Origin: Anadara kagoshimensis | Taxonomy: Eukaryota; Mollusca; Bivalvia; Arcoida; Arcidae | Length of the DNA: 64,000 nt | Assembly: GCA_021292105.1 (NCBI GenBank) | Contig: CM037871.1 | Span: forward strand, 23,640,447 to 23,704,446 | Direction of reading: 5' to 3' | Shown here: positions 26,241 through 57,050 of the stretch, piece by piece | How positions within the stretch are numbered: position 1 is the stretch's first letter | Layout: the number at the start of each line of letters is the position of its first letter | Notes under the pieces: generated by a model | Seen by the model: the letters and a program-made list of their open reading frames with translations, nothing else | Told to the model about the DNA's origin: nothing | Database searches by the model: none | Translations under genes and position numbers: made by a program

Positions 26241-27096
26241 AAGAGACCCATTGGGTCTTATATGCCCACCTGATTAATGATGGCTAGCTGAACTATTTAT
26301 AAAAACATAAAAAACTGATCAATATATACAATATCCAAATATACATACATAGTTTTCCAGATAATTAACCATTTCAGTTTTCTTTCACATCTGTGACCTT
26401 GGCCTTTGAACCCACGGCCTTCATCTATATATCAAACAACTGTTGTCAAAACCTACAATATTCTTATATACTTCCTTATACAAAAGTTTATATTTTTCCA
26501 GATACTTAACCATTTCAGTATTTCAGTATTTTTTCGCATCAGTGACCTTGACCTTTGAACCCATGCCATTGATCTATATATCAAAATGATCGTTGTATCA
26601 ATACCTACAATATTTTAATATGCATGCCTATAAAAAAAGTTTATGGTTTCTAGATAATTCACCATTTCAGTATTCTTTCACATCTGTGACCATGACTTTT
26701 GAACCCATGACCTAAATCTATAGTCTTATATACACACATATACAAAAAATTTATACTTTTTTAGACAAATAAAATAAGTACTTTCAAAATTGACCTTGAC
26801 CCCATTTTGAGAGAAATTACAAGAATATGTCCAAACTGAAACTCTCATGCCATTATCTGATCAAATAGTCATGTTATAGCAGTTTGAAGCTCTTTTACCT
26901 TTTTTTCAAAATTAAACTAAAAAATCTGTAACCTATACTTTGTCCCAATTTCACAAAATGAACAAACTATAGGCTTAAGACCCTACAGAAGCCAAATATC
27001 ACATCAGATTTTTTTCTCCAATCATCGGTTTTTGAGAAGAACACAGGCTGGGCTATGCCATAAGATCACGTAACATTTGATCAGGTGGGCTAAAAA
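26239..27096 (+). mobile_element. Dispersed element E
   Basis: Left end ACAAGAGACCCATTGGGTCT then GCCCACCTGATTAATG; right end TTGATCAGGTGGGCTAAAAA. Its variant ends (CCCACCTGA and TCAGGTGGG) have matching compensatory changes, which supports their being inverted partners. The body contains three to four of the ~145 bp units with TGACCTTGACCTTTGAACC, then a right part like that of element H (TTACAAGAATATGTC, CATTATCTGATCAAATAGTCA). Confidence 0.75.
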
Positions 27097-28033: not shown

Positions 28034-29737
28034 AACAAGAGGCCCATGGGTCGTAACGCTCACCTGAGGCTAAGTACATATCTCATGCAAAGGTTCAATG
28101 GTCAATAACATTTATTAAAGAGAACTCCTAATTTTCAGCAGTAAGGCAGAATTAAATGCAATGATTTTTGCAAATTAATCATACCTTGTCCCGAGATTGC
28201 TACATATAATATATGTATAATATATTAATTTATATAATATATAGTCTAGCTACAACACATTATTAATAAACAGCTAAAAAAGTAAAAACAAAAGTATGAA
28301 ACTATGACCTTCATCTATATATCAAAATGATTGTTAGAACATTACCTACAATATACATGCCTATACAAAAAGTTAATAGTTTTCGAGATAATAAACCATT
28401 TCAGTATCCTTTCCCATCTGTAAACTTGACCTTTGAACCCATTACCTTAATCTATATATCAAAATGATCGTTAAATCAACTCCTACAATATTGTAATATA
28501 CATGTTTATACAAAATTTTTATAGTTTTTGAGATAATTAACCATTTCAGTATCCTTTCGCATCTGTGACCTTGACCTTTGAATCCATGACCTTAATCTAT
28601 ATATGAAAATCATCGTTAAATCAATTCCTACAATATTGTAATATACATGTCTATACAAAAAGCTTATAGTTTTCGAGATAATTAACCATTGCAGTATTCT
28701 TTCCCATCTGTGACCTTGACCTTTGAATGCATGACATTAATCTATATATCAAAATGATCATTAAATCAAAACATACAATATTCTAATATATATGTCTATA
28801 CATAAAATTTATAGTTTTTGAGATAATTAACCATTTCGGTATTCTTTTGCATCTGTGACCTTGACCTTTGAACCTATGACCTTAGTCTACATATCATAAT
28901 GATCGTTAAATCAATTCCTGCAATATTCTAATATACATGTCTATACAAAAAGTTAATAGTTTTCTAGATAATTAACCGTGTCGGTATTGTTTCGCATCTG
29001 TGACCTTGACCTTTGAACCCATGACCTTTATTAATATATCAAAATGACCATTGTGCCATTACCTACAATATTCTAACATGTATGCCTATACAAAAAGTTA
29101 ATAGTTTTGCAGATAATCAACTATAACTGTAATAGTTGTGCATCCTTGACCTTTGAACTCATGACCTTGATCTATGTATCAAAATGATCGTCATGTCAAT
29201 ACCTAAAATTAACTGAAAATCACATGCCATTATAACCTGAAATGTTTAAAAAATAGCATTTTTATCAAAGGTCAAAAACAGGGACAAGACAAGATCAACA
29301 GTGAAAACTCCATGCAATTATCTTCAGCCGTTATTGAGTTATAACAATAAATGTCTCATTTTCAAAATTACATAATTTTACGCAAAAAACGCGTAACCTA
29401 TTTTTTGTTCAATTTTCATAAAAAACACAATTTTAATGTTTCCAGGTATGCTAAATCTAAATATCTAATCAAAATTTGCCTGCACTTTTTGCTTTCAGAG
29501 AAGAAGATTTTTTTTGTCTTTTTGCTATTTTTAGTAACGGCGGCCATCTTGTTGTGTGTGGAAAAACCCCGAACACAATTTTGAAAGGCTGTTACCCAGG
29601 CATAATAATCGCCAAGTTTCATCAAATTTGGCCCAGTAGTTTTGGAGAAGATTAAAATGTAAAGTTTATACACGACGGACGACGGGCGGTGATAGATTGC
29701 AATAGCTCATCTGAGCCTTTGGCTCAGTTGAGCTAAA
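28034..29737 (+). mobile_element. Dispersed element F
   Basis: Left end AACAAGAGGCCCATGGG and ACGCTCACCTGAGG; right end GCAATAGCTCATCTGAGCC and GGCTCAGTTGAGCTAAAAA. Six ~145 bp units lie between about 28300 and 29200 with TGACCTTGACCTTTGAA, ATATATCAAAATGATCGTTAA and ATACATGTCTATACAAAAAG. The right third (CGCAAAAAACGCGTAACCTA at 29381, GGCGGCCATCTTGT at 29538, GACGGACGACGGGCGG) closely matches element I at 63299-63680. Confidence 0.8.
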
Positions 29738-29739
29738 AA

Positions 29740-30280
29740 TGTTTAAATACATCTGTAATTACAAATTTTATTGGTATTATATATAGTATTGTCAGCCATC
29801 TTAGATCTCAGACCACCAACAATTTGGACATTCCATACTTAATTTGGTTTGAGTCAGGAATGCCCATGCACTGGGTCTCATAACCTTACAAAAATTAATG
29901 CAATTAAAATGTGATTGACAATCAAGGGGATCATTTAAATATGAGTCAACAATAAGCTAGGATAAATTTGTATTATTCCAAGTTTTCCAAACTTATTTTG
30001 GAGCAGTATTGAGACTACAAATAATTGGAATTATTTGGGACAAATTAAAGAGACAAATGTTCCATATACCAATAATCAAAATTATCCTAGCTTTGTCCTT
30101 ACTGTTAGGATAAAGTTTGAAAAATTTAAGATTAAAATACACAATTTTCTCAACTTTAACTATTTTGACATTAAACTGCAAGAGTATTATAAAGAGCTAG
30201 CACAGTACAAAGGTCATTCAAAATGCAAAATTTAGATCATTCACAGACAATAGAAAACTACAAATCTCTACAAAACTGAC
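29740..30280. other. Left flank of the satellite array
   Basis: No gene. GGAATGCCCATGCACTGGGTCTC at 29857 (key words GCCCATG, CTGGGTCT) weakly resembles the left end of the dispersed elements, and GTCAGCCATCTTAGAT at 29792 resembles their CCATCTTGGAT module. Whether this is the other half of element G at 51579 is discussed in the findings. Confidence 0.35.
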
Positions 30281-30970
30281 AATACTTTATGTACATGAAA
30301 TGTAATTACAGTCTTTGTAATGAACTATATATTATGTACATGAAATGTAATTACAGTCTTTGTAATGAACTATATATATGTACATGAAATGTAATTACAG
30401 TCTTTGTAATGAACTATATATTATGTACATGAAATGTAATTACAGTCTTTGTAATGAATTATATATTATGTACATCAAATGTAATTACAGTCTTTGTAAT
30501 GAACTATATATTATGTACATGAAATGTAATTACAGTCTTTGTATGAACTACATTATGTACATCAAATGTAATTACAGTCTTTGTAATGAACTATACTTTA
30601 TGTACATGAAATGTAATTACAGTCTTTGTAATGAACTATACTTTATGTACATGAAATGTAATTAGTCTTTGTAATGAACTATACTTTATGTACATCAAAT
30701 GTAATTAGATCCTTGTAATAAACAATACTTTATGTACATCAAATGTAATTACAGTCTTTGTAATGAACTATACTTTATGTACATCAAATGTAATTACAGT
30801 CTTTGTAATTAACTACACTTTATGTATATTAAATAAAATTAGTCTTTGTAATGAACTGTATGTTATGTATGTAATTAGAGTCTTTGTAATGAACTATACT
30901 TTATGTACATCAAATGTAATTAGATCCTTGTAATGAACAATATTTTATGTACATCAAATGAAATTACAGA
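30281..30970 (+). repeat. 45 bp satellite, left edge block
   Basis: About 15 monomers. The monomer runs GTAATTACAG, TCTTTGTAAT, GAACTATACT, TTATGTACAT, CAAAT (45 bases). Here many units have TACATGAAAT in place of TACATCAAAT and TATATTATG in place of TACTTTATG. The same GAAAT variant dominates the right edge of the array (50800-51320) and is rare in the middle. Confidence 0.95.
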
Positions 30971-31151
30971 GGCCTAAAAAAAAATTTTTTCGTTTCCCCT
31001 TACCCGACCGACCCTATTTTTTCCCGCGGACCCTAATCTTTTTATCCGATTCGGCCGATTAGACGCCTTCTGATTTCGATATTATATTTTCAGGAAACGC
31101 GTCCGCAGTCGTGTCCGTTTTTCTATTTGTGCTTTATAATTATAAAACAAG

Positions 31152-31677
31152 ATGGCAGCATACATGTTGCAGGCTGCAAGTCTGTTGGCGTTTCGTTTTA
31201 AAGCCTGTCGGCATATGAAGGAAAAAAATCTAATGATGACAGTCCCAAATAATGAACTCATATCAAATATATTTGAACGACATCACACGTAGGCATCAAA
31301 GGTGCAGGATTTTTCTGCAACGTGCAGAGTGGAATTTGCTGGCCCAGCATTTGACATCGACGGAAGTATTTCCGCCGGTGAAGCTGTTCATAAATTTAAT
31401 ATAAAACTTATAGAATTTGAATCACGCATATTCTTTGTTAAAGTCATGTTCTCTTCGCCCCGGATTATCTTGTTCTCATTCAGTAGAAGTAGCATATTAT
31501 AGCGGTGCAATTTGAAGACCAGATATTTGTGCCTACTGTGCTATAGAAGGTGCAGAGGTGGATGCAGTTTTGAAACAAAGTTTCAAAACTGTACTGCCTT
31601 TGTGTGAGTTTTGTGCTAAAGCTGGAAAAACTCCAATCAAATACAGACCATATGGTAGAAATGCTATTAAGAAATAG
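31152..31677 (+). pseudogene. Short coding-like fragments inside the TIR element
   Basis: Three frames lie in a row: 46 codons starting at ATG 31152 in an AAGATGG context shortly after TATAAAA; 66 codons at 31302-31502; and an open stretch from 31516 to the TAG at 31675. The last has two CxxC pairs (31528-31539 and 31603-31614, 21 residues apart) as in small zinc ribbons, followed by a basic C-terminus. The frames are not continuous and no junction is proved, so they could be exons of a captured gene, remains of a transposase, or chance. I do not recognise a family. Confidence 0.3.
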
Positions 31678-32011
31678 ACTCTACTTCAAAGTATAAGAAA
31701 TAGGACTACTTCAACATAAAATTTATTTGGTCTCATTGTTTTGTGTATTGTTCTATTAAATGTCATTTAAAGTTTAAATTCTTTTATTCTTCCACATCTT
31801 TTGCTTTACATGTTTAATACAATATATATCTGTATGCTGTCTGATGTCATATAAAAGGATTTTAAGAAACTTTATATTTCCAGTTTCTAATACTTGTCAT
31901 CTCTAGTCCTTTTTAATTGGAGAGTTCTTCTGATCGAAAAAGAGAAGAAAAGCTGTATTACTTGGCGAAAGGTCAAATGTGTATTATGTTATGAATTTAA
32001 TACAGTTGCCA

Positions 32012-32092
32012 TGTGAATTTTTGCCTCGATATAAGTGAAATAATCTTGACTTGGGTGTAAAACACGATTAATCTAATCTAATCTTAATCATG
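32012..32092 (+). mobile_element. SINE 3' tail fragment
   Basis: Contains CGATATAAGTGAAATAATC and TTGACTTGGG, the same block that occurs inverted at 60155-60192 within the full SINE (as CCCAGTCAAGAATATTTCAC and TTATATC). It ends in a short (ATCTA/TAATC)n run, as a SINE tail would. The 5' part is not identifiable. Confidence 0.7.
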
Positions 32093-32397
32093 TGAATCTT
32101 CAATCTGACATAAATCTCTTTATTCCTTGTCTATTGGGGTGTTCAGATTTGGGGTGTTCATCTGAACACCATTCTCTTGTCCTTCAATCCTTATCTGAAA
32201 CAGAATAAAAAGGTTTAGAAACTTCAGATAGTGAGGGTTGATAAAAATGTAACATCTTCAGCTTGCTTCGATGTGGAACACCTGAAATTTCTTACATCAA
32301 TATGTAAAAAAATAAATTTAAAAAAAAAAAAAAACCTACCTACCTACCCTATTTTTTTCACTATGTAAGGGGAAACGAACAATTTTTTTTTTAGGCC

Positions 32398-35300
32398 AGA
32401 CTTTGGAATGAACTATATTTTATGTACATCCAATGTAATTACTGCCTTTGTAATGATCTGGACTTTATGTACATCAAAAGCAATTACAGTCTTTGTAATG
32501 AACTATACTTCATATACATCAAATGTAAAAACAGTCTACGTAATGAATTATTCTTTAATACATCAAATGTAATTAGAGTATTTGTATTGAACTGTGCATA
32601 ATGTATATCAAATACAATTACAGTCTTTGTTATATAGTATACTTGTGTACATCAAATGTAATTTCAGTCTTTGTAATGAACTATACTTTATGTACATCAA
32701 ATGTAATTTCAGTATTTGTAATGAACTATACTTTATGTACATCAAATGTAATTACAGTATTTCTAATGAACTGTACTTTATGTACATCAAATGCAATTAC
32801 AGTCTTTGTAATATAGTTTACTTGTGTACATCAAATGTAATTACAGTCTTTGTAATGAACTATACTTTATGTACATCAAATGTAATTAGTCTGTGTAATG
32901 AACTATACTTCATGTACATCAAATGTAATTTCAGTATTTGTAATGAACTATACTTTATGTACATCAAATGTAATTACAGTATTTCTAATGAACTATATTT
33001 TATGTACACCAAATGCAATTACATTCTTTGTAATAAAGCATACTTATGTACATCAAATGTAATTACAGACTTTGGAATGAACTATACTTTATATACATCC
33101 AATGTAATTACAGACTTTGGAATGAACTATACTTTATGTACATCAAATGTAATTACAGTATTTCTAATGAACTATATTTTATGTACACCAAATGCAATTA
33201 CATTCTTTGTAATGAAGCATACTTATGTACATCAAATGTAATTACAGACTTTTTGAATGAATTATATTTTATATACATCGAATGTAATTACAGACTTTGG
33301 AATGAACTATACTTTATGTATATTAAATGAAATTAGATCCTTGTAATGAACAATACTTTATGTACATCAAATGTAAATACACACTTTGGAATGAACTATA
33401 TTTTATGTACATCCAATGTAATTACTGCCTTTGTAATGATCTGGACTTTATGTACATCAAAAGCAATTACAATCTTTGTAATATAGTATACTTCATATAC
33501 ATCAAATGTAATAACAGTCTATGTAATGAATTATTCTTTATGTACATCAAATATAATTAGAGTATTTGTAATGAACTGTGCATAATGTATATCAAATGCA
33601 ATTGCAGTCTTTGTAATATAGTATACTTGTGTACATCAAATGTAATTACAGACTTTGGAATGAACTATACTTTATATACATCCAATGTAATTACAGTATT
33701 TGTAATGAACTGTGCATAATGTATATCAAATGCAATTACAGTCTTTGTAATATAGTATACTTGTGTACATCAAATGTAATTACAGTCTTTGTAATGAACT
33801 ATACGTTATGTACATCAAATGTAATTAGTCTTTGTAATGAACTATACTTTATGTACATCAAATGTAATTACAGTATTTCTAATGAACTATACGTTATGTA
33901 CATCAAATGTATTTAGTCTTTGTAATGAACCATACTTTATGTACATCAAATGTAATTACAGTATTTGTAATGAACTGTGCATAATGTATATCAAATGCAA
34001 TTACAGTCTTTGTAATATAGTATACTTGTGTACATCAAATGTAATTACAGTCTTTGTAATGAACTATACGTTATGTACATCAAATGTAATTAGTCTTTGT
34101 AATGAACTATACTTTATGTACATCAAATGTAATTACAGTATTTCTAATGAACTGTACTTTATGTACATCAAATGTAATTACAGTCTTTGTAATATAGTAT
34201 ACTTGTGTACACCAAATGCAATTACAGTCTTTGTAATGAATTTACTTTAAATACATCAAATGTAATTAGTCTTTGTAATGAACTACACTTGATGTACATC
34301 AAATTGTAATTAATCTTTGTAATGAACAATTTTTTATGTACATCAAATGCAATTACAGTCTTTGTAATAAAGTATAATTATGTACATCAAATGTAATAAG
34401 TCTTTGTAATGAACTATACTTTATATACATCCAATGTAAATAGCCTTTGTAATGAACTGTACTTAATGTATAACAAATGTAATTAGAGTCTTTGGATTGA
34501 CCTATATTTTATGTACATCAAATGTATTTTAGAATATTTGTAATGAACTATACTTCATGTACATCAGACGTTATTAGTCTTTGTAAATGAACTATACTCC
34601 TTGGACATCAAATGTAATTACTGCCTTTGTAATTATCTATATTTATGTACATCAAATGTAATTAGAGTATTTGTAATGAACTGTACTTAATGTATATCAA
34701 ATGTAATTAGAGTCTTTGTAATAGGCTACACTTTATGTACATCAAATCTAATTACAGTATTTCTAATGAACTATATTTTATGTACACCAAATGCAATTAC
34801 ATTCTTTGTAATGAAGCATACTTATGTACATCAAATGTAATTACAGACTTTTTGAATGAATTATATTTTATATACATCAAATGTAATTACAGACTTTGGA
34901 ATGAACTATACTTTATGTATATTAAACGAAATTAGATCCTTGTAATGAACAATACTTTATGTACATCAAATGTAAATACACACTTTGGAATGAACTATAT
35001 TTTATGTACATCCAATGTAATTACTGCCTTTGTAATGATCTGGACTTTATGTACATCAAAAGCAATTACAGTCTTTGTAATATAGTATACTTCATATACA
35101 TCAAATGTAATAACAGTCTATGTAATGAATTATTCTTTATGTACATCAAATATAATTAGAGTATTTGTAATGAACTGTGCATAATGTATACCAAATGCAA
35201 TTGCAGTCTTTGTAATATAGTATACTTGTGTACATCAAATGTAATTACAGTCTTTGTAATGAACTATACGTTATGTACATCAAATGTATTTAGTCTTTGT

Positions 35301-38300
35301 AATGAACCATACTTTATGTACATCAAATGTAATTACAGTATTTGTAATAACTGTGCATAATGTATATCAAATGCAATTACAGTCTTTGTAATATAGTATA
35401 CTTGTGTACATCAAATGTAATTACAGTCTTTGTAATGAACTATACGTTATGTACATCAAATGTAATTAGTCTTTGTAATGAACTATACTTTATGTACATC
35501 AAATGTAATTACAGTATTTCTAATGAACTGTACTTTATGTACACCAAATGTAATTTCAGTATTTGTAATATAGTATATTGTGTACACCAAATGCAATTAC
35601 AGTCTTTGGAATGAACTATACTTTATATACATCCAATGTAATTAGTCTTTGCAATGAACTGTACTTCATTTATAACAAATGTAATTACTGCCTTTCTAAT
35701 GAACGTAATTAATCTGTGTAAATGAACTATACTCTTTGAACATCAAATGTAATTACAGACTTTGTAATGAACTATATTTTATGTACATCAAATGTAATTA
35801 GTCTTTCTTATGAACTGTACTTAATGTATATCAAATGTTATTAGTGTCTTTGTAATAGACTACACTTAATGTACATGAAATCTAATTACAGTCTTTGTAA
35901 TTAATTTTACTTTAAATACATCAAATGTAATTAGTCTTTGTAATGAACTACACTTGATGTACATCAAATTGTAATTAATCTTTGTAATGAACAATTTTTT
36001 ATGTACATCAAATGCAATTACAGTCTTTGTAATAAAGTATAATTATGTACATCAAATGTAATAAGTCTTTGTAATGAACTATACTTTATATACATCCAAT
36101 GTAAATAGCCTTTGTAATGAACTGTACTTAATGTATAACAAATGTAATTAGAGTCTTTGGATTGACCTATATTTTATGTACATCAAATGTATTTTAGAAT
36201 ATTTGTAATGAACTATACTTCATGTACATCAGACGTTATTAGTCTTTGTAAATGAACTATACTCCTTGGACATCAAATGTAATTACTGCCTTTGTAATTA
36301 TCTATATTTTATGTACATCAAATGTAATTAGAGTATTTGTAATGAACTGTACTTAATGTGTATCAAATGTAATTATAGTCTTTGTAATAGGCTACACTTT
36401 ATGTACATCAAATCTAATTACAGTATTTCTAATGAACTATATATTATGTACACTAAATGCAATTACATTCTTTGTAATGAAGCATACTTATGTACATCAA
36501 ATGTAATTACAGACTTTTTGAATGAATTATATTTTATATACATCCAATGTAATTACAGACTTTGGAATGAACTATACTTTATGTACATCAAATGTAATTA
36601 CAGTATTTCTAATGAACTATATTTTATGTACACCAAATGCAATTACATTCTTTGTAATGAAGCATACTTATGTATATCAAATGTAATTACAGACTTTTTG
36701 AATGAATTATATTTTATATACATCGAATGTAATTACAGACTTTGGAATGAACTATACTTTATGTATATTAAATGAAATTAGATCCTTGTAATGAACAATA
36801 CCTTATGTACATCAAATGTAAATACAGACTTTGGAATGAACTATATTTTATGTACATCGAATGTAATTACTGCCTTTGTAATGATCTGGACTTTATGTAC
36901 ATCAAAAGCAATTACAGTCTTTGTAATATAGTATACTTCATATACATCAAATGTAATAACAGTCTATGTAATGAATTATTCTTTATGTACATCAAATATA
37001 ATTAGAGTATTTGTAATGAACTGTGCATAATGTATATCAAATGCAATTACAGTCTTTGTAATATAGTATACTTGTGTACATCAAATGTAATTACAGACTT
37101 TGGAATGAACTATACTTTATATACATCCAATGTAATTACAGACTTTGGAATGAACTATACTTTATGTACATCAAATGTAATTAGTCTTTGTAATGAACTA
37201 TACTTCATGTACATCAATGTAATTTCAGTATTTGTAATGAACTATACTTTATGTACATCAAATGTAATTACAGTATTTCTAATGAACTATATTTTATGTA
37301 CACCAAATGCAATTACATTCTTTGTAATAAACATATATGTACATAATGTAATTACAGACTTTGGAATGAACTATACTTTATATACATCCAATGTAATTAC
37401 TTTGATGTACATAATATGTATTACGAAATGAATTCATTGGGAATGAATATAATTTAATACTGTAATTACAGACTTTTTGAATGAATTATATTTTATATAC
37501 ATCGAATGTAATTACAGACTTTGGAATGAACTATACTTTATGTATATTAAATGAAATTAGATCCTTGTAATGAACAATACTTTATGTACATCAAATGTAA
37601 TTACAGTATTTCTAATGAACTGTACTTTATGTACACCAAATGTAATTTCAGTATTTGTAATATAGTATACTTGTGTACACCAAATGCAATTACAGTCTTT
37701 GGAATGAACTATACTTTATATACATCCAATGTAATTAGTCTTTGCAATGAACTGTACTTCATTTATAACAAATGTAATTACTGCCTTTCTAATGAACGTA
37801 ATTAATCTGTGTAAATGAACTATACTCTTTGAACATCAAATGTAATTACAGACTTTGTAATGAACTATATTTTATGTACATCAAATGTAATTAGTCTTTC
37901 TTATGAACTGTACTTAATGTATATCAAATGTTATTAGTGTCTTTGTAATAGACTACACTTAATGTACATGAAATCTAATTACAGTCTTTGTAATTAATTT
38001 TACTTTAAATACATCAAATGTAATTAGTCTTTGTAATGAACTACACTTGATGTACATCAAATTGTAATTAATCTTTGTAATGAACAATTTTTTATGTACA
38101 TCAAATGCAATTACAGTCTTTGTAATAAAGTATAATTATGTACATCAAATGTAATAAGTCTTTGTAATGAACTATACTTTATATACATCCAATGTAAATA
38201 GCCTTTGTAATGAACTGTACTTAATGTATAACAAATGTAATTAGAGTCTTTGGATTGACCTATATTTTATGTACATCAAATGTATTTTAGAATATTTGTA

Positions 38301-38940
38301 ATGAACTATACTTCATGTACATCAGACGTTATTAGTCTTTGTAAATGAACTATACTCCTTGGACATCAAATGTAATTACTGCCTTTGTAATTATCTATAT
38401 TTTATGTACATCAAATGTAATTAGAGTATTTGTAATGAACTGTACTTAATGTGTATCAAATGTAATTAGAGTCTTTGTAATAGGCTACACTTTATGTACA
38501 TCAAATCTAATTACAGTATTTCTAATGAACTATATTTTATGTACACTAAATGCAATTACATTCTTTGTAATGAAGCATACTTATGTACATCAAATGTAAT
38601 TACAGACTTTTTGAATGAATTATATTTTATATACATCCAATGTAATTACAGACTTTGGAATGAACTATACTTTATGTACATCAAATGTAATTACAGTATT
38701 TCTAATGAACTATATTTTATGTACACCAAATGCAATTACATTCTTTGTAATGAAGCATACTTATGTATATCAAATGTAATTACAGACTTTTTGAATGAAT
38801 TATATTTTATATACATCGAATGTAATTACAGACTTTGGAATGAACTATACTTTATGTATATTAAATGAAATTAGATCCTTGTAATGAACAATACCTTATG
38901 TACATCAAATGTAAATACAGACTTTGGAATGAACTATATT
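32398..38940 (+). repeat. 45 bp satellite, left higher-order section
   Basis: Continuous 45 bp monomers with diagnostic variants that recur in blocks. The rare marker ACATCAGACGTTATT occurs at 34561, 36226 and 38319, spacings of 1665 (exactly 37 x 45) and 2093 bp, so higher-order units here are shorter than in the right section. A scrambled patch at about 37310-37470 interrupts the pattern. Frames of up to 215 codons (32594-33241) run through because 45 is a multiple of three. Confidence 0.93.
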
Positions 38941-41900
38941 TTATGTACATCGAATGTAATTACAGTCTTTGTAATGAACTATATTTTGTGTACAACAAAT
39001 GTAATTAAAGTATTTGTAATGAACTGTACTTTTTGTTCATCAAATTGTAATTAGTCTTTGTAATGAACTATACTTTATGTACACTACATGTAATTGCAGT
39101 CTTTGTAATGAACTATATTTGATGTATATCAAATGTAATTAGAGTCTTTGTAATGAACTATACTTTACGTACATCAAATGCAATTACAGTCTTTGTAATG
39201 AACTGTACATTATGCACATCAAATGCAATTAGAGTCTTTGTAATGGACTACACTTTATGTACATAAAATCTAATTAGAGTCCTTGTAATGAACTGTACTT
39301 TATGCACATGAAATGCAATTAGTCTTTGTAATGAACTATACTTCATGTACATCAAATGTAATTAAAGTCTTTGTAATGAACTTAATTTAATGGACTTAAA
39401 ATGTATTTACGGTCTTTGTAATGAACTATACTTTATGTACATCAAATGTAATTACTGCCTTTGTAATGATCTGGACTTTATGTACATCAAAAGCAATTAC
39501 AGTCTTTGTAATATAGTATACTTCATATACATCAAATGTAATAACAGTCTATGTAATGAATTATTCTTTATGTACATCAAATATAATTAGAGTATTTGTA
39601 ATGAACTGTGCATAATGTATATCAAATGCAATTACAGTCTTTGTAATATAGTATACTTGTGTACATCAAATGTAATTACAGACTTTGGAATGAACTATAC
39701 TTTATATACATCCAATGTAATTACAGACTTTGGAATGAACTATACTTTATGTACATCAAATGTAATTAGTCTTTGTAATGAACTATACTTCATGTACATC
39801 AAATGTAATTTCAGTATTTGTAATGAACTATACTTTATGTACATCAAATGTAATTACAGTATTTCTAATGAACTATATTTTATGTACACCAAATGCAATT
39901 ACATTCTTTGTAATAAAGCATACTTATGTACATCAAATGTAATTACAGACTTTGGAATGAACTATACTTTATATACATCCAATGTAATTACAGACTTTGG
40001 AATGAACTATACTTTATGTACACCAAATGCAATTACATTCTTTGTAATGAAGCATACTTATGTACATCAAATGTAATTACAGACTTTTTGAATGAATTAT
40101 ATTTTATATACATCGAATGTAATTACAGACTTTGGAATGAACTATACTTTATGTATATTAAATGAAATTAGATCCTTGTAATGAACAATACTTTATGTAC
40201 ATCAAATGTAAATACACACTTTGGAATGAACTATATTTTATGTACATCCAATGTAATTACTGCCTTTGTAATGATCTGGACTTTATGTACATCAAAAGCA
40301 ATTACAGTCTTTGTAATATAGTATACTTCATATACATCAAATGTAATAACAGTCTATGTAATGAATTATTCTTTATGTACATCAAATGTAATTACAGTAT
40401 TTGTAATGAACTGTGCATAATGTATATCAAATGCAATTACAGTCTTTGTAATATAGTATACTTGTGTACATCAAATGTAATTACAGTCTTTGTAATGAAC
40501 TATACGTTATGTACATCAAATGTAATTAGTCTTTGTAATGAACTATACTTTATGTACATCAAATGTAATTACAGTATTTCTAATGAACTGTACTTTATGT
40601 ACATCAAATGTAATTACAGTCTTGGTAATATAGTATACTTGTGTACACCAAATGCAATTACAGTCTTTGGAATGAACTATACTTTATATACATCCAATGT
40701 AATTAGTCTTTGCAATGAACTGTACTTCATTTATAACAAATGTAATTACTGCCTTTCTAATAAACGTAATTAATCTGTGTAAATGAACTATACTCTTTGA
40801 ACATCAAATGTAATTACAGACTTTATAATGAACTATATTTTATGTACATCAAATGTAATTAGTCTTTCTTATGAACTGTACTTAATGTATATCAAATGTT
40901 ATTAGCGTCTTTGTAATAGACTACACTTAATGTACATGAAATCTAATTACAGTCTTTGTAATGAATTTTACTTTAAATACATCAAATGTAATTAGTCTTT
41001 GTAATGAACTACACTTGATGTACATCAAATTGTAATTAATCTTTGTAATGAACAATTTTTTATGTACATCAAATGCAATTACAGTCTTTGTAATAAAGTA
41101 TAATTATGTACATCAAATGTAATAAGTCTTTGTAATGAACTATACTTGATATACATCCAATGTAAATAGCCTTTGTAATGAACTGTACTTAATGTATAAC
41201 AAATGTAATTAGAGTCTTTGGATTGACCTATATTTTTGTACATCAAATGTATTTTAGAATATTTGTAATGAACTATACTTCATGTACATCAGACGTTATT
41301 AGTCTTTGTAAATGAACTATACTCCTTGGACATCAAATGTAATTACTGCCTTTGTAATTATCTATATTTTATGTACATCAAATGTAATTAGAGTATTTGT
41401 AATGAACTGTACTTAATGTATATCAAATGTAATTAGAGTCTTTGTAATAGGCTACACTTTATGTACATCAAATCTAATTACAGTCTTTGTAATGAATTTT
41501 ACTTTATATACATCAAATGTAATTAGTCTGTAATGAACTACACTTGATGTACATCAAATTGTAATTAATCTTTGTAAAGAACTATACTTGATGTAAACCA
41601 CATTAGTCTTTGTAATGAGCTATATTTTATGTACATCAAATGTAATTGGATTCTTTGTAATTGACTATACTTTATGTACATCACATGTAATTACAGTCTT
41701 TGTAATGAACTATACTTTATGTACATCAAATGCAATTACAGTCTTTATAATGAACTATATTTTATGTACATAAAATGTAATTACAGTCTTTGTAATGAAC
41801 TATATTTTGTGTACAACAAATGTAATTAAAGTATTTGTAATGAACTGTACTTTTTGTTCATCAAATTGTAATTAGTCTTTGTAATGAACTATACTTTATG

Positions 41901-44900
41901 TACACTACATGTAATTACAGTCTTGTAATGAACTATATTTGATGTATATCAAATGTAATTAGAGTCTTTGTAATGAACTATACTTTACGTACATCAAATG
42001 CAATTACAGTCTTTGTAATGAACTGTACATTATGCACATCAAATGCAATTAGAGTCTTTGTAATGGACTACACTTTATGTACATAAAATCTAATTAGAGT
42101 CCTTGTAATGAACTGTACTTTATGCACATGAAATGCAATTAGTCTTTGTAATGAACTATACTTCATGTACATCAAATGTAATTAAAGTCTTTGTAATGAA
42201 CTTAATTTAATGGACTTAAAATGTATTTACGGTCTTTGTAATGAACTATACTTTATGTACATCAAATGTAATTACTGCCTTTGTAATGATCTGGACTTTA
42301 TGTACATCAAAAGCAATTACAGTCTTTGTAATATAGTATACTTCATATACATCAAATGTAATAACAGTCTATGTAATGAATTATTCTTTATGTACATCAA
42401 ATATAATTAGAGTATTTGTAATGAACTGTGCATAATGTATATCAAATGCAATTACAGTCTTTGTAATATAGTATACTTGTGTACATCAAATGTAATTACA
42501 GACTTTGGAATGAACTATACTTTATATACATCCAATGTAATTACAGACTTTGGAATGAACTATACTTTATGTACATCAAATGTAATTAGTCTTTGTAATG
42601 AACTATACTTCATGTACATCAAATGTAATTTCAGTATTTGTAATGAACTATACTTTATGTACATCAAATGTAATTACAGTATTTCTAATGAACTATATTT
42701 TGTACACCAAATGCAATTACATTCTTTGTAATAAAGCATACTTATGTACATCAAATGTAATTACAGACTTTGGAATGAACTATACTTTATATACATCCAA
42801 TGTAATTACAGACTTTGGAATGAACTATACTTTATGTACACCAAATGCAATTACATTCTTTGTAATGAAGCATACTTATGTACATCAAATGTAATTACAG
42901 ACTTTTTGAATGAATTATATTTTATATACATCGAATGTAATTACAGACTTTGGAATGAACTATACTTTATGTATATTAAATGAAATTAGATCCTTGTAAT
43001 GAACAATACTTTATGTACATCAAATGTAAATACACACTTTGGAATGAACTATATTTTATGTACATCCAATGTAATTACTGCCTTTGTAATGATCTGGACT
43101 TTATGTACATCAAAAGCAATTACAGTCTTTGTAATATAGTATACTTCATATACATCAAATGTATCATTTATAATAACAGTCTATGTAATGAATTATTCTT
43201 TGTACATCAAATGTAATTACAGTATTTGTAATGAACTGTGCATAATGTATATCAAATGCAATTACAGTCTTGTAATAGTATTGTGTACATCAAATGTAAT
43301 TACAGTCTTTGTAATGAACTATACTTTATGTACATCAATGTAATTAGTCTTTGTAATGAACTATACTTTATGTACATCAAATGTAATTACAGTATTTCTA
43401 ATGAACTGTACTTTATGTACATCAAATGTAATTACAGTCTTGGTAATATAGTATACTTGTGTACACCAAATGCAATACAGTCTTTGAATGAACTATACTT
43501 TATATACATCCATGTAATTAGTCTTTGCAATGAACTGTACTTCATTTATAACAAATGTAATTACTGCCTTTCTAATAAAACGTAATTAATCTGTGTAAAT
43601 GAACTATACTCTTGAACATCAAATGTAATTACAGACTTTATAATGAACTATATTTTAGTACATCAAATGTAATTAGTCTTTCTTATGAACTGTACTTAAT
43701 GTATATCAAATGTTATTAGCGTCTTTGTAATAGACTACACTTAATGTACATGAAATCTAATTACAGTCTTTGTAATGAATTTTACTTTAAATACATCAAA
43801 TGTAATTAGTCTTTGTAATGAACTACACTGATGTACATCAAATTGTAATTAATCTTTGTAATGAACAATTTTTATGTACATCAAATGCAATTACAGTCTT
43901 TGTAATAAAGTATAATTATGTACATCAAATGTAATAAGTCTTGTAATGAACTATACTGATGATATACATCCAATGTAAATAGCCTTTGTAATGAACTGTA
44001 CTTAATGTATAACAAATGTAATTAGAGTCTTTGGATTGACCTATATTTATGTACATCAAATGTATTTTAGAATATTTGTAATGAACTATACTTCATGTAC
44101 ATCAGACGTTATTAGTCTTTGTAAATGAACTATACTCCTTGGACATCAAATGTAATTACTGCCTTTGTAATTATCTATATTTTATGTACATCAAATGTAA
44201 TTAGAGATTTGTAATGAACTGTACTTAATGTATCAAATGTAATTAGAGTCTTTGTAATAGGCTACACTTTATGTACATCAAATCTAATTACAGTCTTTGT
44301 AATGAATTTTACTTATATACATCAAATGTAATTAGTCTGTAATGAACTACACTTGATGTACATCAAATTGTATTAATCTTTGTAAAGAACTATACTTGAT
44401 GTAAACCACATTAGTCTTTGTAATGAGCTATATTTATGTACATCAAATGTAATTGGATTCTTTGTAATTGACTATACTTTATGTACATCACATGTAATTA
44501 CAGTCTTTGTAATGAAACTATACTTTATGTACATCAATGCAATTACAGTCTTATAATGAACTATATTTTATGTACATAAAATGTAATTAGTCTTGTAATG
44601 AACTATATTTGTGTACAACAAATGTAATTAAAGTATTTGTAATGAACTGTACTTTTGTCATCAAATTGTAATTAGTCTTTGTAATGAACTATACTTATGT
44701 ACACTACATGTAATTACAGTCTTTGTAATGAACTATATTTGATGTATATCAAATGTAATTAGAGTCTTGTAATGAACTATACTTACGTACATCAAATGCA
44801 ATTACAGTCTTTGTAATGAACTGTACATTATGCACATCAAATGCAATTAGAGTCTTTGTAATGGACTACACTTTATGTACATAAAATCTAATTAGAGTCC

Positions 44901-47900
44901 TTGTAATGAACTGTACTTTATGCACATGAAATGCAATTAGTCTTTGTAATGAACTATACTTCATGTACATCAAATGTAATTAAAGTCTTTGTAATGAACT
45001 TAATTTAATGGACTTAAAATGTATTTACGGTCTTGTAATGAACTATACTTTATGTACATCAAATGTAATTACTGCCTTTGTAATGATCTGGACTTTATGT
45101 ACATCAAAAGCAATTACAGTCTTTGTAATATAGTATACTTCATATACATCAAATGTAATAACAGTCTATGTAATGAATTATCTTTATGTACATCAAATAT
45201 ATAGAGTATTGTAATGAACTGTGCATAATGTATATCAAATGCAATTACAGTCTTTGTAATATAGTATACTTGTGTACATCAAATGTAATTACAGACTTTG
45301 GAATGAACTATACTTTATATACATCCAATGTAATTACAGACTTGGAATGAACTATACTTTATGTACATCAAATGTAATTAGTCTTGTAATGAACTATACT
45401 TCATGTACATCAAATGTAATTCAGTATTTGTAATGAACTATACTTTATGTACATCAAATGTAATTACAGTATTTCTAATGAACTATATTATGTACACCAA
45501 ATGCAATTACATCTTTGTAATAAAGCATACTTATGTACATCAAATGTAATTACAGACTTTGGAATGAACTATACTTTATATACATCCAATGTAATTACAG
45601 ACTTTGGAATGAACTATACTTTATGTACACCAAATGCAATTACATTCTTTGTAATGAAGCATACTTATGTACATCAAATGTAATACAGACTTTTGAATGA
45701 ATTATATTTTATATACATCTAATGTAATTACAGACTTTGGAATGAAACTATACTTTATGTATATTAAATGAAATTAGATCCTTGTAATGAACAATACTTT
45801 ATGTACATCAAATGTAAATACACACTTTGGAATGAACTATATTTTATGTACATCCAATGTAATTACTGCCTTTGTAATGATTGGACTTTATGTACATCAA
45901 AAAGCAATTACAGTCTTTGTAATATAGTATACTTCATATACATCAAATGTAATAACAGTCTATGTAATGAATTATTCTTTATGTACATCAAATGTAATTA
46001 CAGTATTGTAATGAACTGTGCATAATGTATATCAAATGCAATTACAGTCTTTGTAATATAGTATACTTGTGTACATCAAATGTAATTACAGTCTTTGTAA
46101 TGAACTATACTTTATGTACATCAAATGTAATTAGTCTTTGTAATGAACTATACTTTATGTACATCAAATGTAATTACAGTATTTCTAATGAACTGTACTT
46201 TATGTACATCAAATGTAATTACAGTCTTGGTATATAGTATACTTGTGTACACCAAATGCAATTACAGTCTTTGGAATGAACTATACTTTATATACATCCA
46301 ATGTAATTAGTCTTTGCAATGAACTGTACTTCATTTATAACAAATGTAATTACTGCCTTTCTAATAAACGTAATTAATCTGTGTAAATGAACTATACTCT
46401 TTGAACATCAAATGTAATTACAGACTTTATAATGAACTATATTTTATGTACATCAAATGTAATTAGTCTTTCTTATGAACTGTACTTAATGTATATCAAA
46501 TGTTATTAGCGTCTTTGTAATAGACTACACTTAATGTACATGAAATCTAATTACAGTCTTTGTAATGAATTTACTTTAAATACATCAAATGTAATTAGTC
46601 TTTGTAATGAACTACACTGATGTACATCAAATTGTAATTAATCTTTGTAATGAACAATTTTTTATGTACATCAAATGCAATTACAGTCTTTGTAATAAAG
46701 TATAATTATGTACATCAAATGTAATAAGTCTTTGTAATGAACTATACTTGATATACATCCAATGTAAATAGCCTTTGTAATGAACTGTACTAATGTATAA
46801 CAAATGTAATTAGAGTCTTTGGATTGACCTATATTTTATGTACATCAAATGTATTTTAGAATATTGTAATGAACTATACTTCATGTACATCAGACGTTAT
46901 TAGTCTTTGTAAATGAACTATACTCCTTGGACATCAAATGTAATTACTGCTTTGTAATTATCTATATTTTATGTACATCAAATGTAATTAGAGTTTGTAA
47001 TGAACTGTACTTAATGTATATCAAATGTAATTAGAGTCTTTGTAATAGGCTACACTTTATGTACATCAAATCTAATTACAGTCTTTGTAATGAATTTTAC
47101 TTTATATACATCAAATGTAATTAGTCTGTAATGAACTACACTTGATGTACATCAAATTGTAATTAATCTTTGTAAAGAACTATACTTGATGTAAACCACA
47201 TTAGTCTTTGTAATGAGCTATATTTTATGTACATCAAATGTAATTGGATTCTTTGTAATTGACTATACTTTATGTACATCACATGTAATTACAGTCTTTG
47301 TAATGAACTATACTTTATGTACATCAAATGCAATTACAGTCTTTATAATGAACTATATTTTATGTACATAAAATGTAATTACAGTCTTTGTAATGAACTA
47401 TATTTGTGTACAAACAAATGTAATTAAAGTATTTGTAATGAACTGTACTTTTGTTCATCAAATTGTAATTAGTCTTTGTAATGAACTATACTTTATGTAC
47501 ACTACATGTAATTACAGTCTTTGTAATGAACTATATTTGATGTATATCAAATGTAATTAGAGTCTTTGTAATGAACTATACTTTACGTACATCAAATGCA
47601 ATTACAGTCTTTGTAATGAACTGTACATTATGCACATCAAATGCAATTAGAGTCTTTGTAATGGACTACACTTTATGTCCATAAAATCTAATTAGAGTCC
47701 TTGTAATGAACTGTACTTATGCACATGAAATGCAATTAGTCTTTGTAATGAACTATACTTCATGTACATCAAATGTAATAAAGTCTTGTAATGAACTTAA
47801 TTTAATGGACTTAAAATGTATTTACGGTCTTTGTAATGAACTATACTTTATGTACATCGAATGTAATTACTGCCTTTGTAATGATCTGGACTTTATGTAC

Positions 47901-50640
47901 ATCAAAAGCAATTACAGTCTTTGTAATATAGTATACTTCATATACATCAAATGTAATAACAGTCTATGTAATGAATTATTCTTTATGTACATCAAATATA
48001 ATTAGAGTATTTGTAATGAACTGTGCATAATGTATATCAAATGCAATTACAGTCTTTGTAATATAGTATACTTGTGTACATCAAATGTAATTACAGACTT
48101 TGGAATGAACTATACTTTATATACATCCAATGTAATTACAGACTTTGGAATGAACTATACTTTATGTACATCAAATGTAATTAGTCTTTGTAATGAACTA
48201 TACTTCATGTACATCAAATGTAATTTCAGTATTTGTAATGAACTATACTTTATGTACATCAAATGTAATTACAGTATTTCTAATGAACTATATTTTATGT
48301 ACACAAATTACATTCTTTGTAATAAAGCATACTTATGTACATCAAATGTAATTACAGACTTTGGAATGAACTATACTTTATATACATCCAATGTAATTAC
48401 AGACTTTGGAATGAACTATACTTTATGTACACCAAATGCAATTACATTCTTTGTAATGAAGCATACTTATGTACATCAAATGTAATTACAGACTTTTTGA
48501 ATGAATTATATTTTATATACATCTAATGTAATTACAGACTTTGGAATGAACTATACTTTATGTATATTAAATGAAATTAGATCCTTGTAATGAACAATAC
48601 TTTATGTACATCAAATGTAAATACACACTTTGGAATGAACTATATTTTATGTACATCCAATGTAATTACTGCCTTTGTAATGATCTGGACTTTATGTACA
48701 TCAAACAGCAATTACAGTCTTTGTAATATAGTATACTTCATATACATCAAATGTAATAACAGTCTATGTAATGAATTATTCTTTATGTACATCAAATGTA
48801 ATTACAGTATTTGTAATGAACTGTGCATAATGTATATCAAATGCAATTACAGTCTTTGTAATATAGTATACTTGTGTACATCAAATGTAATTACAGTCTT
48901 TGTAATGAACTATACGTTATGTACATCAAATGTAATTAGTCTTTGTAATGAACTATACTTTATGTACATCAAATGTAATTACAGTATTTCTAATGAACTG
49001 TACTTTATGTACATCAAATGTAATTACAGTCTTGTAATATAGTATACTTGTGTACACCAAATGCAATTACAGTCTTTGGAATGAACTATACTTTATATAC
49101 ATCCAATGTAATTAGTCTTTGCAATGAACTGTACCTCATTTATAACAAATGTAATTACTGCCTTTCTAATAAACGTAATTAATCTGTGTAAATGAACTAT
49201 ACTCTTTGAACATCAAATGTAATTACAGACTTTATAATGAACTATATTTTATGTAAATCAAATGTAATTAGTCTTTCTTATGAACTGTACTTAATGTATA
49301 TCAAATGTTATTAGCGTCTTTGTAATAGACTACACTTAATGTACATGAAATCTAATTACAGTCTTTGTAATGAATTTTACTTTAAATACATCAAATGTAA
49401 TTAGTCTTTGTAATGAACTACACTTGATGTACATCAAATTGTAATTAATCTTTGTAATGAACAATTTTTTATGTACATCAAATGCAATTACAGTCTTTGT
49501 AATAAAGTATAATTATGTACATCAAATGTAATAAGTCTTTGTAATGAACTATACTTGATATACATCCAATGTAAATAGCCTTTGTAATGAACTGTACTTA
49601 ATGTATAACAAATGTAATTAGAGTCTTTGGATTGACCTATATTTTATGTACATCAAATGTATTTTAGAATATTTGTAATGAACTATACTTCATGTACATC
49701 AGACGTTATTAGTCTTTGTAAATGAACTATACTCCTTGGACATCAAATGTAATTACTGCCTTTGTAATTATCTATATTTTATGTACATCAAATGTAATTA
49801 GAGTATTTGTAATGAACTGTACTTAATGTATATCAAATGTAATTAGAGTCTTTGTAATAGGCTACACTTTATGTACATCAAATCTAATTAGTCTTTGTAA
49901 TGAATTTTACTTTATATACATCAAATGTAATTAGTCTGTAATGAACTACACTTGATGTACATCAAATTGTATTAATCTTTGTAAAGAACTATACTTGATG
50001 TAAACCACATTAGTCTTTGTAATGAGCTATATTTTATGTACATCAAATGTAATTGGATTCTTTGTAATTGACTATACTTTATGTACATCACATGTATTAC
50101 AGTCTTTGTAATGAACTATACTTTATGTACATCAAATGCAATTACAGTCTTTATAATGAACTATATTTTATGTACATAAAATGTAATTACAGTCTTTGTA
50201 ATGAACTATATTTTGTGTACAACAAATGTAATTAAAGTATTTGTAATGAACTGTACTTTTTGTTCATCAAATTGTAATTAGTCTTTGTAATGAACTATAC
50301 TTTATGTACACTACATGTAATTACAGTCTTTGTAATGAACTATATTTGATGTATATCAAATGTAATTAGAGTCTTTGTAATGAACTATACTTTACGTACA
50401 TCAAATGCAATTACAGTCTTTGTAATGAACTGTACATTATGCACATCAAATGCAATTAGAGTCTTTGTAATGGACTACACTTTATGTACATAAAATCTAA
50501 TTAGAGTCCTTGTAATGAACTGTACTTTATGCACATGAAATGCAATTAGTCTTTGTAATGAACTATACTTCATGTACATCAAATGTAATTAAAGTCTTTG
50601 TAATGAACTTAATTTAATGGACTTAAAATGTATTTACGGT
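38941..50640 (+). repeat. 45 bp satellite, ~2.8 kb higher-order repeat
   Basis: A large unit of about 2.8 kb (62-63 monomers) is repeated about four times. Marker ATGGACTTAAAATG occurs at 39390, 42210, 45008, 47805 and 50617, spacings 2820, 2798, 2797 and 2812. Marker ACATCAGACGTTATT occurs at 41286, 44099, 46887 and 49696, spacings 2813, 2788 and 2809. A block with TTTTGTGTACAACAAATG (first at about 38984) is present in every unit of this section and absent from the left section. Units agree closely except for scattered one-base indels concentrated at about 43140-45750. Confidence 0.95.
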
Positions 50641-51578
50641 CTTTGTAATGAACTATACTTTATGTACATCAAATGTAATTAGAGTCTTTGTAATGAACTA
50701 TACTTCATGTACATCAAATGTAATTAAAGTCTTTGTAATGAACTTAATTTTATGTACTTAAAATGTATTTACGGTCTTTGTAATGAACTATACTTTATGT
50801 ACATGAAATGTAATTACAGTCTTTAAAATGAACTATACTTTATGTACATGAAATGCAATTACAGTCTTTGTAATGAACTACATTTTATGTACATTAAATT
50901 GTAATTAGAGTCTTTGTAATGAATTATATTTCATGTACATTAAATATAATTACAGTCTTTGTAATGAACTATACTTCATGTACATCAAATGTAATTAGAG
51001 TCTTTGTAATGAACTTAATTTTATGTACCTAAAATGTATTTACGGTCTTTGTAATGAACTATACTTTATGTACATGAAATGTAATTACAGTCTTTAAAAT
51101 GAACTATACTTTATGTACATGAAATGCAATTACAGTCTTTGTAATGAACTACATTTTATGTACATTAAATTGTAATAAGAGTCTTTGTAATGAATTATAT
51201 TTCATGTACATTAAATATAATTACAGTCTTTGTAATGAACTATATTTTATGTACATCAAATGTAATTACAGTCTTTATAATGAACTATACTTTATGTACA
51301 TGAAATGCAATTACAGTCTTTGTAATGAACTATATTTTATGTACATTAAATGTAATTAGAGTCTTTGTAATGGACTATACTTTATGTACATCAAATGTAA
51401 TTAGAATATTTGTAATGAACTGTACTTTATGTACATCAAATGTAATTAGAATATTTGTAATGAATTGTACTTTATGTACATCAAATGTAATTAGAGTCTT
51501 TGTATGGACTAAATTCAGGTACATTAAATGTAATTACAAACTTTCAAATGACTATGCTTTATGTATGTCAAATGTAAT
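50641..51578 (+). repeat. 45 bp satellite, right edge block
   Basis: About 20 monomers without the 2.8 kb pattern; a local ~313 bp direct repeat is visible (TTACGGTCTTTGTAATGAAC at about 50770 and 51040, then TCTTTAAAATGAAC in each). Units use the TACATGAAAT and TACATTAAAT variants. The final units are diverged (TATGTATGTCAAATG) and the array ends at the start of a TGACCTTGACC block. Confidence 0.93.
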
Positions 51579-52183
51579 GACCTTGACCTTTGAACCCATG
51601 ACCTTCATTCATAAATCAAAATGAACATTAGGGCAATGCCTACAATATTCTAAAATACATGAGATAATTATGTTTGCATCTGTGACCTTTGAACCCATGA
51701 TCTTCATTCATATATCAAAATGATCAATATGCCAGAACCCACAATACTCTTCTATATATGCCTATACAAAAAGTTTATTGTTTTCCAGATATATGAACAA
51801 ATACACTTAGTTTAGCAATTTCCCTTAGGTATCTTGCCATTTCCCCATTTTGGCCCCTACAGCTGTAATTATGCAAACCTGAAACTAGATGCCCTAAGTA
51901 TAATTTACATGAAATATCTAAGCTATATCTATTGTATTTTCAGACAAGATGATTTTTAAACATTTTAACAATTTTCTCCTTTATGGGGCCCAAAGGGGAC
52001 ATAACCCCTTTTGTGCAAATTTGAAGCCCTTTACCTAGACATCATTGCTGCTACATATCACCCAATTCTGGCAAGTAGTTTTGGAGGAGTTTATTAAAAT
52101 GTGTGAAAAGTTTATATAGGATGAACGCCAGAAAGAGACAGATGGCAATAGCTCATCTAAGCCTTTGTTTCAGGTGAGATAAA
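51579..52183 (+). mobile_element. Right part of dispersed element G
   Basis: Begins mid-unit with GACCTTGACCTTTGAACCC, then CATTCATAAATCAAAATGA, a second GTGACCTTTGAACCC block, GATATATGAACAAATAC and TTTATGGGGCCCAAAGGGGAC as in element B, and closes with ATAGCTCATCTAAGCC and TTTCAGGTGAGATAAAA. The left end is missing; the satellite takes its place. Confidence 0.75.
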
Positions 52184-53090
52184 AAAAAGTTGCATGCTTC
52201 AAACTAAGAATATTTATACATGTAGGCATATTGCAGACCTTCTAGCTGTCCTGATAGAAGCAGGGTATCAATCACGCCTTTGTCCAATTTGGTCAGAAAA
52301 ATACATTTCTCCCAATTTCAGAAATAATTCCTTTAAGTGACAGATTATATTATTCCATAATCAGAAATTATTTAATTAAATAAGGTAGTCTTTGAATCAA
52401 CAAAACAACGGAACAAGAATAAAGAAATGAAATAAAGGAAAAAACAATTATCAAAATAAAAATAAATCAACAATAAAAAAGGAAAGATTCTTTTTTAACC
52501 TTCAACAACCAACACTAGACAGTTTTTCTTAGTAAATAAGGGTAATGTCAGAAGTACATTGTATGGTGTATGGTCTCACTAATCCTTAATAAAGACAGAC
52601 AACTTTATTTTAGTTAAATGGCTCCTGTACATATGATAATTTGGCACTTCCACTGAATTTTTCTAATACAGAAATCCCATGATCAAAACCCTGGCACTTC
52701 CACTGAATTTTTCTAACACAAAAATGCCATGATCAAAACCCTATGTTATAAACAAGGTATGAACTTATCTACCTTATGTGCCTTGCAGATTATTAATTTT
52801 TCAATTGGGTCAAAGTTATTCTTTATATCCTACAGAGAAAAGAATTATTGCGAAAAAGTTCAACTGAAGCGTCATTTGCATACTATATACTGTAATATAT
52901 GTTGCTGCTATCAAGGATCATGAATTTCACGCATTTACAAGCTAAACTAGAACTGTCTCTTGAGAGCCATATACCCCCTTCCAGCATTTACTTTCTGATA
53001 TTACCTTGGTTAATGGTCAAGACACACCTTTAAATTTATGACAGTTTTATGACAGTAGTCCAAAGCAATTATGAGCCTGGACTACACTTT
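52184..53090. other. Mostly unique sequence with one 50 bp duplication
   Basis: TGGCACTTCCACTGAATTTT starts at 52642 and again at 52692, a 50 bp direct tandem duplication ending in GATCAAAACCC with a few differences. Otherwise AT-rich, no coding evidence. Confidence 0.6.
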
Positions 53091-57035: not shown

Positions 57036-57050
57036 AAGATATCGTGCGGA
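57036..57050 (+). repeat. Target site duplication, left copy (LINE)
   Basis: AAGATATCGTGCGGA, identical to 59618-59632. The sequence is part of the host repeat (compare GAAGATATCGTGCGGA at 56889). Confidence 0.9.

What the first reader, a model, noticed from the sequence alone, without database searches (positions are those of the whole stretch)
30281..51578. A 21 kb satellite of a 45 bp monomer with a ~2.8 kb higher-order repeat
About 19.9 kb (around 440 monomers by length) of one AT-rich 45 bp unit sits in a single window. The middle is organised into ~2.8 kb blocks shown by rare variants at regular spacing (39390, 42210, 45008, 47805, 50617), while both edges lack the pattern and share a different variant (TACATGAAAT). 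This is what homogenisation by unequal exchange in the centre predicts. I do not recognise the monomer from any named satellite.
Basis: seen in the sequence. Interest (0 to 1): 0.75.

Follow-up and report, generated by a model that had tools for sequence, protein, structure and literature searches.

The report
Single-locus 45-bp repeat array
A 20,000-base stretch of an animal chromosome is built from about 450 copies of one 45-base unit, partly regrouped into larger repeating blocks; it is a real but ordinary example of how tandem repeats grow and become alike.

Summary
453 monomers of one AT-rich 45-bp unit fill 30,282-30,970 and 32,398-51,578. About 39.1-50.7 kb is a 64-monomer (2.79-2.82 kb) higher-order repeat, 4.1 near-identical copies with about 0.2% private substitutions each. 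The gap at 30,971-32,397 is a 1,427-bp inverted-repeat transposon. Two pattern searches of the 1.115-Gb assembly count 168 and 189 matches, exactly the numbers in this window alone, so close copies exist only here: a locus-specific array, not a genome-wide satellite. The 32.4-39.1 kb part is a mosaic of other block duplications (about 38, 42, 48 monomers) sharing exact tracts with the HOR. The right edge abuts a truncated Helentron-like element. No coding constraint was shown. New caveat: 43.16-46.99 kb holds 38 of 44 private indels among HOR copies, mostly 1-bp deletions, as in under-polished consensus, so the copy number is uncertain. Best reading: an ordinary noncoding array grown by unequal exchange. 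Low interest.

The parts
30282..30970 (+). Left edge of the 45-bp array: 16 monomers, rich in TACATGAAAT
30971..32397 (.). 1,427-bp transposon copy inserted into the array; ends GGCCTAAAA...TTTTAGGCC, the two ends match at 31 of their first 33 positions; possible 3-bp target duplication AGA here, not clear at a C11 copy. Two 95% copies of its left 452 bp on C3
32398..39100 (+). Left domain: mosaic of multi-monomer duplications (about 38, 42 and 48 monomers) sharing exact tracts with the HOR
39100..50682 (+). HOR domain: 64-monomer unit; alignment units U1-U4 of 2,821, 2,805, 2,793 and 2,809 bp were cut at 38,792, 41,613, 44,418 and 47,211, and a partial fifth copy at 50,020
43162..46994 (.). 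Stretch holding 38 of 44 private indel events among U1-U4, mostly 1-bp deletions: probable under-polished or gap-filled consensus
50683..51578 (+). Right edge of the array, 84-87% like the HOR, with 5 of 18 TACATGAAAT; its 50,971-51,504 is 90% identical to the left edge
51579..52186 (+). Right flank: Helentron/HINE-like element without its left module (145-bp repeat remnant plus right module); 2,495 first-look candidates in the genome, 40 scored
29770..30281 (+). Left flank: about 510 bp with no second copy among the 40 of 269 candidates scored; it follows a HINE-like element (28,034-29,739)

Best explanation
It is a noncoding, locus-specific tandem array in a transposon-rich stretch in which no host gene was recognised, in an animal genome (probably a bivalve mollusc; that rests on recall and resemblance). 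A 45-bp unit expanded here and, as far as detected, nowhere else. Blocks of many monomers were then duplicated: about 38, 42 and 48 monomers in the left domain, and a 64-monomer block in tandem to about 4.1 copies in the right half. Unequal exchange or gene conversion between sister chromatids or homologues is the likely engine. A transposon inserted near the left edge. No function is indicated. Shown: unit, HOR, mosaic of exact tracts, the insert, close copies at one locus only. Inferred: unequal exchange rather than slippage or replication-based copying, and the absence of function. The order of the block duplications is not resolved.
For: 453 monomers. HOR offset 64 and a 798-bp exact repeat, far outside shuffled-order controls. 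U1-U4 are 98.4-99.6% identical in substitutions over full length, the first 280 columns of U1 being the main exception; private substitutions from column 280 on are 1, 6, 1 and 9. Exact tracts of up to 371 bp link the left domain to HOR copies at many different shifts (e.g. 2585, 6835, 6880, 9653, 11000 bp), and tracts of 404 and 798 bp lie within the left domain or at its border (shifts 1665, 3758, 2093), as repeated out-of-register exchange predicts (the 45 longest of 165 pairs were listed). Genome totals of 168 and 189 matches to two monomer patterns (up to 3 mismatches) equal those of the window, with 0 for the control patterns.
Against: The expectation that edges are the most diverged is not met: the left edge is closest to consensus. 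A mosaic of shifts could also come from replication-based copying. The sequence at 43.16-46.99 kb is of doubtful quality. Relatives in other species could not be searched. The HINE-like element at the right border leaves an origin by transposition or rearrangement possible.
Confidence: 0.85

Rival explanations
1. The HOR copy number is partly an assembly product: the core was collapsed, or bridged by gap filling with a raw long read, so the true array may be longer or shorter.
For: 38 of 44 private indel events among U1-U4 (from alignment column 280 on) lie in 43,162-46,994, and 31 of 34 single-base events; one of the 38 sits at a unit boundary that I set. Deleted bases are mostly T or A in short runs, and U3 has 22 indel events against 1 private substitution.
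Against: Tandem HOR copies also exist outside that stretch: 39,103 and 41,923 share 779 exact bases, 39,445 and 47,860 share 445, 39,097 and 50,324 share 358. So the HOR is real even if its number is not.
Confidence: 0.4
2. Chromosome-specific centromeric satellite: the array marks or is part of the C15 centromere.
For: AT-rich, HOR-organised, close copies on one chromosome only, at 38% of C15 (23.67 of 62.25 Mb).
Against: Only about 21 kb, flanked by dispersed elements; position alone is weak, and other chromosomes were not surveyed for such arrays. A satDNA at a single locus need not be centromeric: in C. gigas CgiSat22 is limited to one locus and is not among the three satDNAs that the passage links to CenH3 (PMC8268682, results section part 1).
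Confidence: 0.04
3. A repetitive protein gene: the unit is 15 codons and two + strand frames are open in the consensus (NELYFMYIKCNYSLC and MNYTLCTSNVITVFV).
For: ORFs up to 215 aa. On 250 of 453 monomers (HOR copies thinned) variation is higher at third codon positions of the first frame (0.141 against 0.074; one-sided p = 0.013, three phases tested); its synonymous fraction is 0.275 against 0.212 in permutations (p = 0.053); stops are 70 of 1,042 substitutions against 102 expected (permutation p = 0.12).
Against: 185 of 451 monomers change length by a non-multiple of three, though some of that may be sequence error; stops do occur; the second frame shows no bias; no Pfam match above cut-off for the two array ORFs scanned. 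Open frames in a 45-bp unit are not unusual (own estimate).
Confidence: 0.02
4. Central repeats of a Helentron/HINE-type mobile element: the unit was carried in or seeded by the element whose right half borders the array.
For: The right border joins a HINE-like 145-bp repeat directly, and no left module was found for that element copy. HINEs in C. gigas carry tandem repeats between two modules, exceptionally of two kinds in a row (PMC7492417, abstract and passages).
Against: The element family is abundant (2,495 first-look candidates), yet no close 45-bp unit lies outside this window; on the left about 510 bp of apparently single-copy DNA separates the array from the nearest element.
Confidence: 0.08

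Closest known systems
Higher-order repeat satellite arrays (human alpha satellite type)
   Same: Diverged basic monomers grouped in a multi-monomer unit whose tandem copies are nearly identical, with a mosaic domain beside it.
   Different: 45-bp monomer, 64 monomers per unit, about 4 copies, one locus, no centromere evidence (alpha satellite features recalled).
Locus-restricted satDNAs of bivalves, e.g. CgiSat22 of Crassostrea gigas (PMC8268682)
   Same: A satellite-like repeat confined to one locus on one chromosome.
   Different: No sequence comparison was possible; no HOR is mentioned in the part read (results section, part 1 of 2).
HINE (non-autonomous Helentron) central repeats (PMC7492417)
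   Same: Tandem repeats amid such elements; the 145-bp arrays of this window look like these.
   Different: No close 45-bp unit was found in other copies of the element.
Other minisatellite arrays of this genome, e.g. the 50-bp array on C5 (72.914-72.921 Mb)
   Same: Long array of similar unit length; that region packs several arrays with units of 33-83 bp.
   Different: 98% matches, and TRF (periods up to 500 bp) reports only the 50-bp period there; kinship to the 45-mer not established.

Membership tests
Higher-order repeat tandem array | Multi-monomer unit repeated in tandem, copies far more alike than monomers within a unit | tested here: met
   Offset 64; U1-U4 98.4-99.6% identical against about 79% between monomers averaged over offsets 1-299
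Satellite DNA in the classical sense | Abundant in the genome, many loci or very long arrays | tested here: not met
   Genome totals of 168 and 189 pattern matches equal those of this window; copies beyond 3 mismatches would be missed
Minisatellite / locus-specific tandem array | Unit of roughly 10-100 bp, kilobases long, one locus | tested here: met
   (size limits recalled)
Centromeric satellite | CenH3 occupancy | not testable with these tools
   no ChIP or Hi-C data
HINE central repeats | Array lies between left and right element modules and recurs in dispersed copies | tested here: not met
   No left module found at the array; no close copy of the unit elsewhere
Repetitive coding sequence | Frame kept: length changes in multiples of three, no stops | tested here: not met
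   185 of 451 monomers break frame; stops occur

The most novel reading that the evidence does not exclude
A chromosome-specific HOR satellite that marks the centromere (or another structural site) of a single chromosome in an animal whose other chromosomes use different sequences.
Probability: 0.03. Interest if true: 0.6.

Novelty: new member of a known kind. Interest (0 to 1): 0.15.

Why it matters
It is a compact, single-locus case in which block duplications of several sizes (about 38, 42, 48 and 64 monomers) and shared exact tracts can be read in one 20-kb sequence, so models of HOR growth could be tested across individuals. It also shows how a local band of 1-bp deletions can expose doubtful assembly inside an array. 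Beyond that it is ordinary.

Tried and rejected
Coding repeat: a weak third-position bias in one frame; rejected on frame-breaking lengths and stops.

Relative on C5: a DNA search with the left edge (2 of 3 candidates scored) matched, besides itself, only a 50-bp array on C5 (7.3 kb). Cyclic alignment of the consensus units gives 43 against a shuffled mean of 21.2, sd 4.7, maximum 34 of 150, and 9-31 for nine other units of this genome on either strand. Because it was picked from a whole genome, such a score may arise by chance (own estimate); kinship is left open. A 35-base piece of the 50-mer has 247 matches in the genome, 143 of them in the 20 kb fetched; the other 104 were not located.

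A profile of the 45-mer for a more sensitive genome search was built but this genome does not take such a query, so diverged relatives remain untested.

The data do not show this: about 1.2 kb of the 48-monomer duplication is 99.5-100% identical, so the order is left open.

Host identification: not done. 'Bivalve' rests on HINE-like elements and recalled motifs; paper searches for ten element or monomer strings gave 0 and 4 papers, the 4 on other subjects by title.

Host genes: in the eight peptides scanned, the only Pfam matches above cut-off were reverse transcriptase and its zinc finger. Rfam: one weak tRNA match in the window; ARAGORN none.

Context sample: 10 stretches of 5 kb held no array of comparable length; the longest was a 1.3-kb 145-bp array. 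The sample is too small for a genome-wide rate.

Full report
Setting. The window is C15:23,640,447-23,704,446 of an unnamed 1.115-Gb assembly in 36 contigs; the eleven large contigs whose length I saw are 44-76 Mb. The genome has HINE-like elements; 'bivalve' is my inference from resemblance and recall. The surroundings hold dispersed 145-bp repeat arrays, microsatellites and a broken LINE with reverse-transcriptase domains (57.1-59.1 kb). No host gene was recognised, but the search for one was partial.

The array. TRF finds period 45 at 30,282-30,969 and 32,397-51,578. Cyclic alignment gives 453 monomers, mean match 88% to the consensus. The consensus on the + strand is TAATGAACTATACTTTATGTACATCAAATGTAATTACAGTCTTTG. 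Monomers of 43 (63) and 44 (76) bp are common. GTAC occurs in 327 of 453. The genome patterns match on one strand only (168 and 189 forward, 0 reverse).

Higher-order structure. In the main block the best offset is 64 monomers (5.06 mean differences; lowest of 200 shuffles 8.76) and the longest exact repeat is 798 bp (at most 142 in 50 shuffles). Four aligned units U1-U4 (2,821, 2,805, 2,793 and 2,809 bp) are 98.4-99.6% identical in substitutions. The first 280 columns of U1 are only 87.6-90.2% identical to the others, so the near-identical block starts near 39.1 kb. The fifth copy is 97.4-100% identical to U2-U4 over its first 560 columns and 84-87% in the following windows; a 358-bp exact match puts the end of the near-identical part near 50,682.

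Left domain. Between 32.4 and 39.1 kb other periods appear: 38 monomers (34,057 to 35,720), 42 (34,630 to 36,475), 48 (35,389 to 37,478). The domain shares exact tracts of up to 371 bp with HOR copies at many shifts. The 48-monomer duplication is 99.5-100% identical over about 1.2 kb, 92% before and 81-90% after that, so it need not be older than the HOR. Such a patchwork is what repeated out-of-register exchange or conversion would leave.

Edges. The left edge (30,282-30,807) is 90% identical to the right edge (50,971-51,504). TACATGAAAT occurs 7 times in the left edge, 5 times in the right and 6 times inside, four of these one in each HOR copy. The left edge is closest to the overall consensus (5.4% substitutions; 8.9-10.5% between 32.4 and 50.0 kb; 8.2-8.6% at the right end), against the simple expectation of decayed edges. 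A plausible reading, not tested, is that the edges keep an array type inside which the HOR grew.

Insert. 30,971-32,397 is a 1,427-bp element whose ends match as inverted repeats at 31 of the first 33 positions, with a possible 3-bp duplication AGA. Its left 452 bp has two 95% copies on C3 and its left 228 bp a 93% copy on C11; its first 73-74 bp recurs at ten further places at 81%. The C11 copy does not show a clear 3-bp duplication. The interruption is thus best read as a transposon insertion into the array; its family was not settled.

Borders. On the right the array joins, within a monomer, a 145-bp repeat of a HINE-like element for which no left module was found; its right module has 2,495 first-look candidates in the genome, 40 of them scored. 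On the left about 510 bp (29,770-30,281) had no second copy among the 40 of 269 candidates scored.

One locus. Patterns of 28 and 30 bases with up to 3 mismatches have 168 and 189 matches in the genome, and the same numbers in this window alone; controls 0. The genome answers list only about 100 places each; that the rest lie here follows from the equal totals. More diverged relatives would be missed; a profile search of this genome was not accepted.

Assembly quality. Of 44 private indel events among U1-U4 (alignment column 280 on), 38 lie in 43,162-46,994, and 31 of 34 single-base events; U1 has none and U4 five. One of the 38 sits at a unit boundary that I set. Deleted bases are mostly T or A in short runs, while U3 has a single private substitution. 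This pattern is typical of residual long-read consensus error (own knowledge) and makes the unit number uncertain. HOR copies outside this stretch are exact over hundreds of bases, so the HOR itself is not an artefact of it.

Function tests. The unit is 15 codons long with two open frames on the + strand, but 185 of 451 monomers break frame, stops occur, and the statistical signal is weak and from several tests. No RNA family reaches its gathering score in the array. The centromere reading cannot be tested here.

Literature. PMC8268682 (abstract, and results section part 1 of 2) reports 52 satDNAs in C. gigas, one (CgiSat22) limited to a single locus. PMC7492417 (passages only) describes HINE elements with central repeats. 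Other papers were seen only as search listings. No paper held the two monomer strings searched. Whether this exact array has been described is unknown.

Verdict. A real, locus-specific 45-bp array with a 64-monomer HOR; ordinary in kind, its sequence not matched to anything named in the little that could be checked, low in interest.

Noticed in passing
9,164-10,596; 26,371-26,674; 28,297-29,226; 54,097-55,351; 62,296-63,044: Dispersed 145-bp repeat arrays; a 25-base core of them matches 29 times on the + strand and never on the - strand of the window. Some are flanked by HINE-like modules: a left end AACAAGAGGCCCATGGGCC at 54.0 kb with partial matches at 25.7, 26.2 and 28.0 kb, and a palindrome-like right end at 29.7 kb.
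   Followed up: partly
145-bp repeat units, e.g. 51,579-51,610: The units carry TGACCTTGACCTTTGAACCC, which resembles nuclear-receptor sites (ERR half site and DR1; recalled, not tested).
   Followed up: no
L057 and L058 (C5:72,906,001-72,926,000): About 350-370 kb from the end of C5, several tandem arrays with units of 33-83 bp lie side by side, the longest a 7.3-kb 50-bp array.
   Followed up: partly
32,022-32,090 within the insert: Matches units of 75-bp-spaced and related tandem arrays elsewhere, e.g. C13:17.811-17.814 Mb and L008.
   Followed up: no
57,081-59,110: Broken LINE with reverse-transcriptase pieces and a zf-RVT domain.
   Followed up: no
60,397-60,466 (-): Weak tRNA match in Rfam (32.3 bits, gathering 29) not called by ARAGORN; possibly a SINE head.
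   Followed up: no
4,152-5,170 and 56,344-57,050: Further short arrays with units of about 150-167 bp and 147-174 bp.
   Followed up: no
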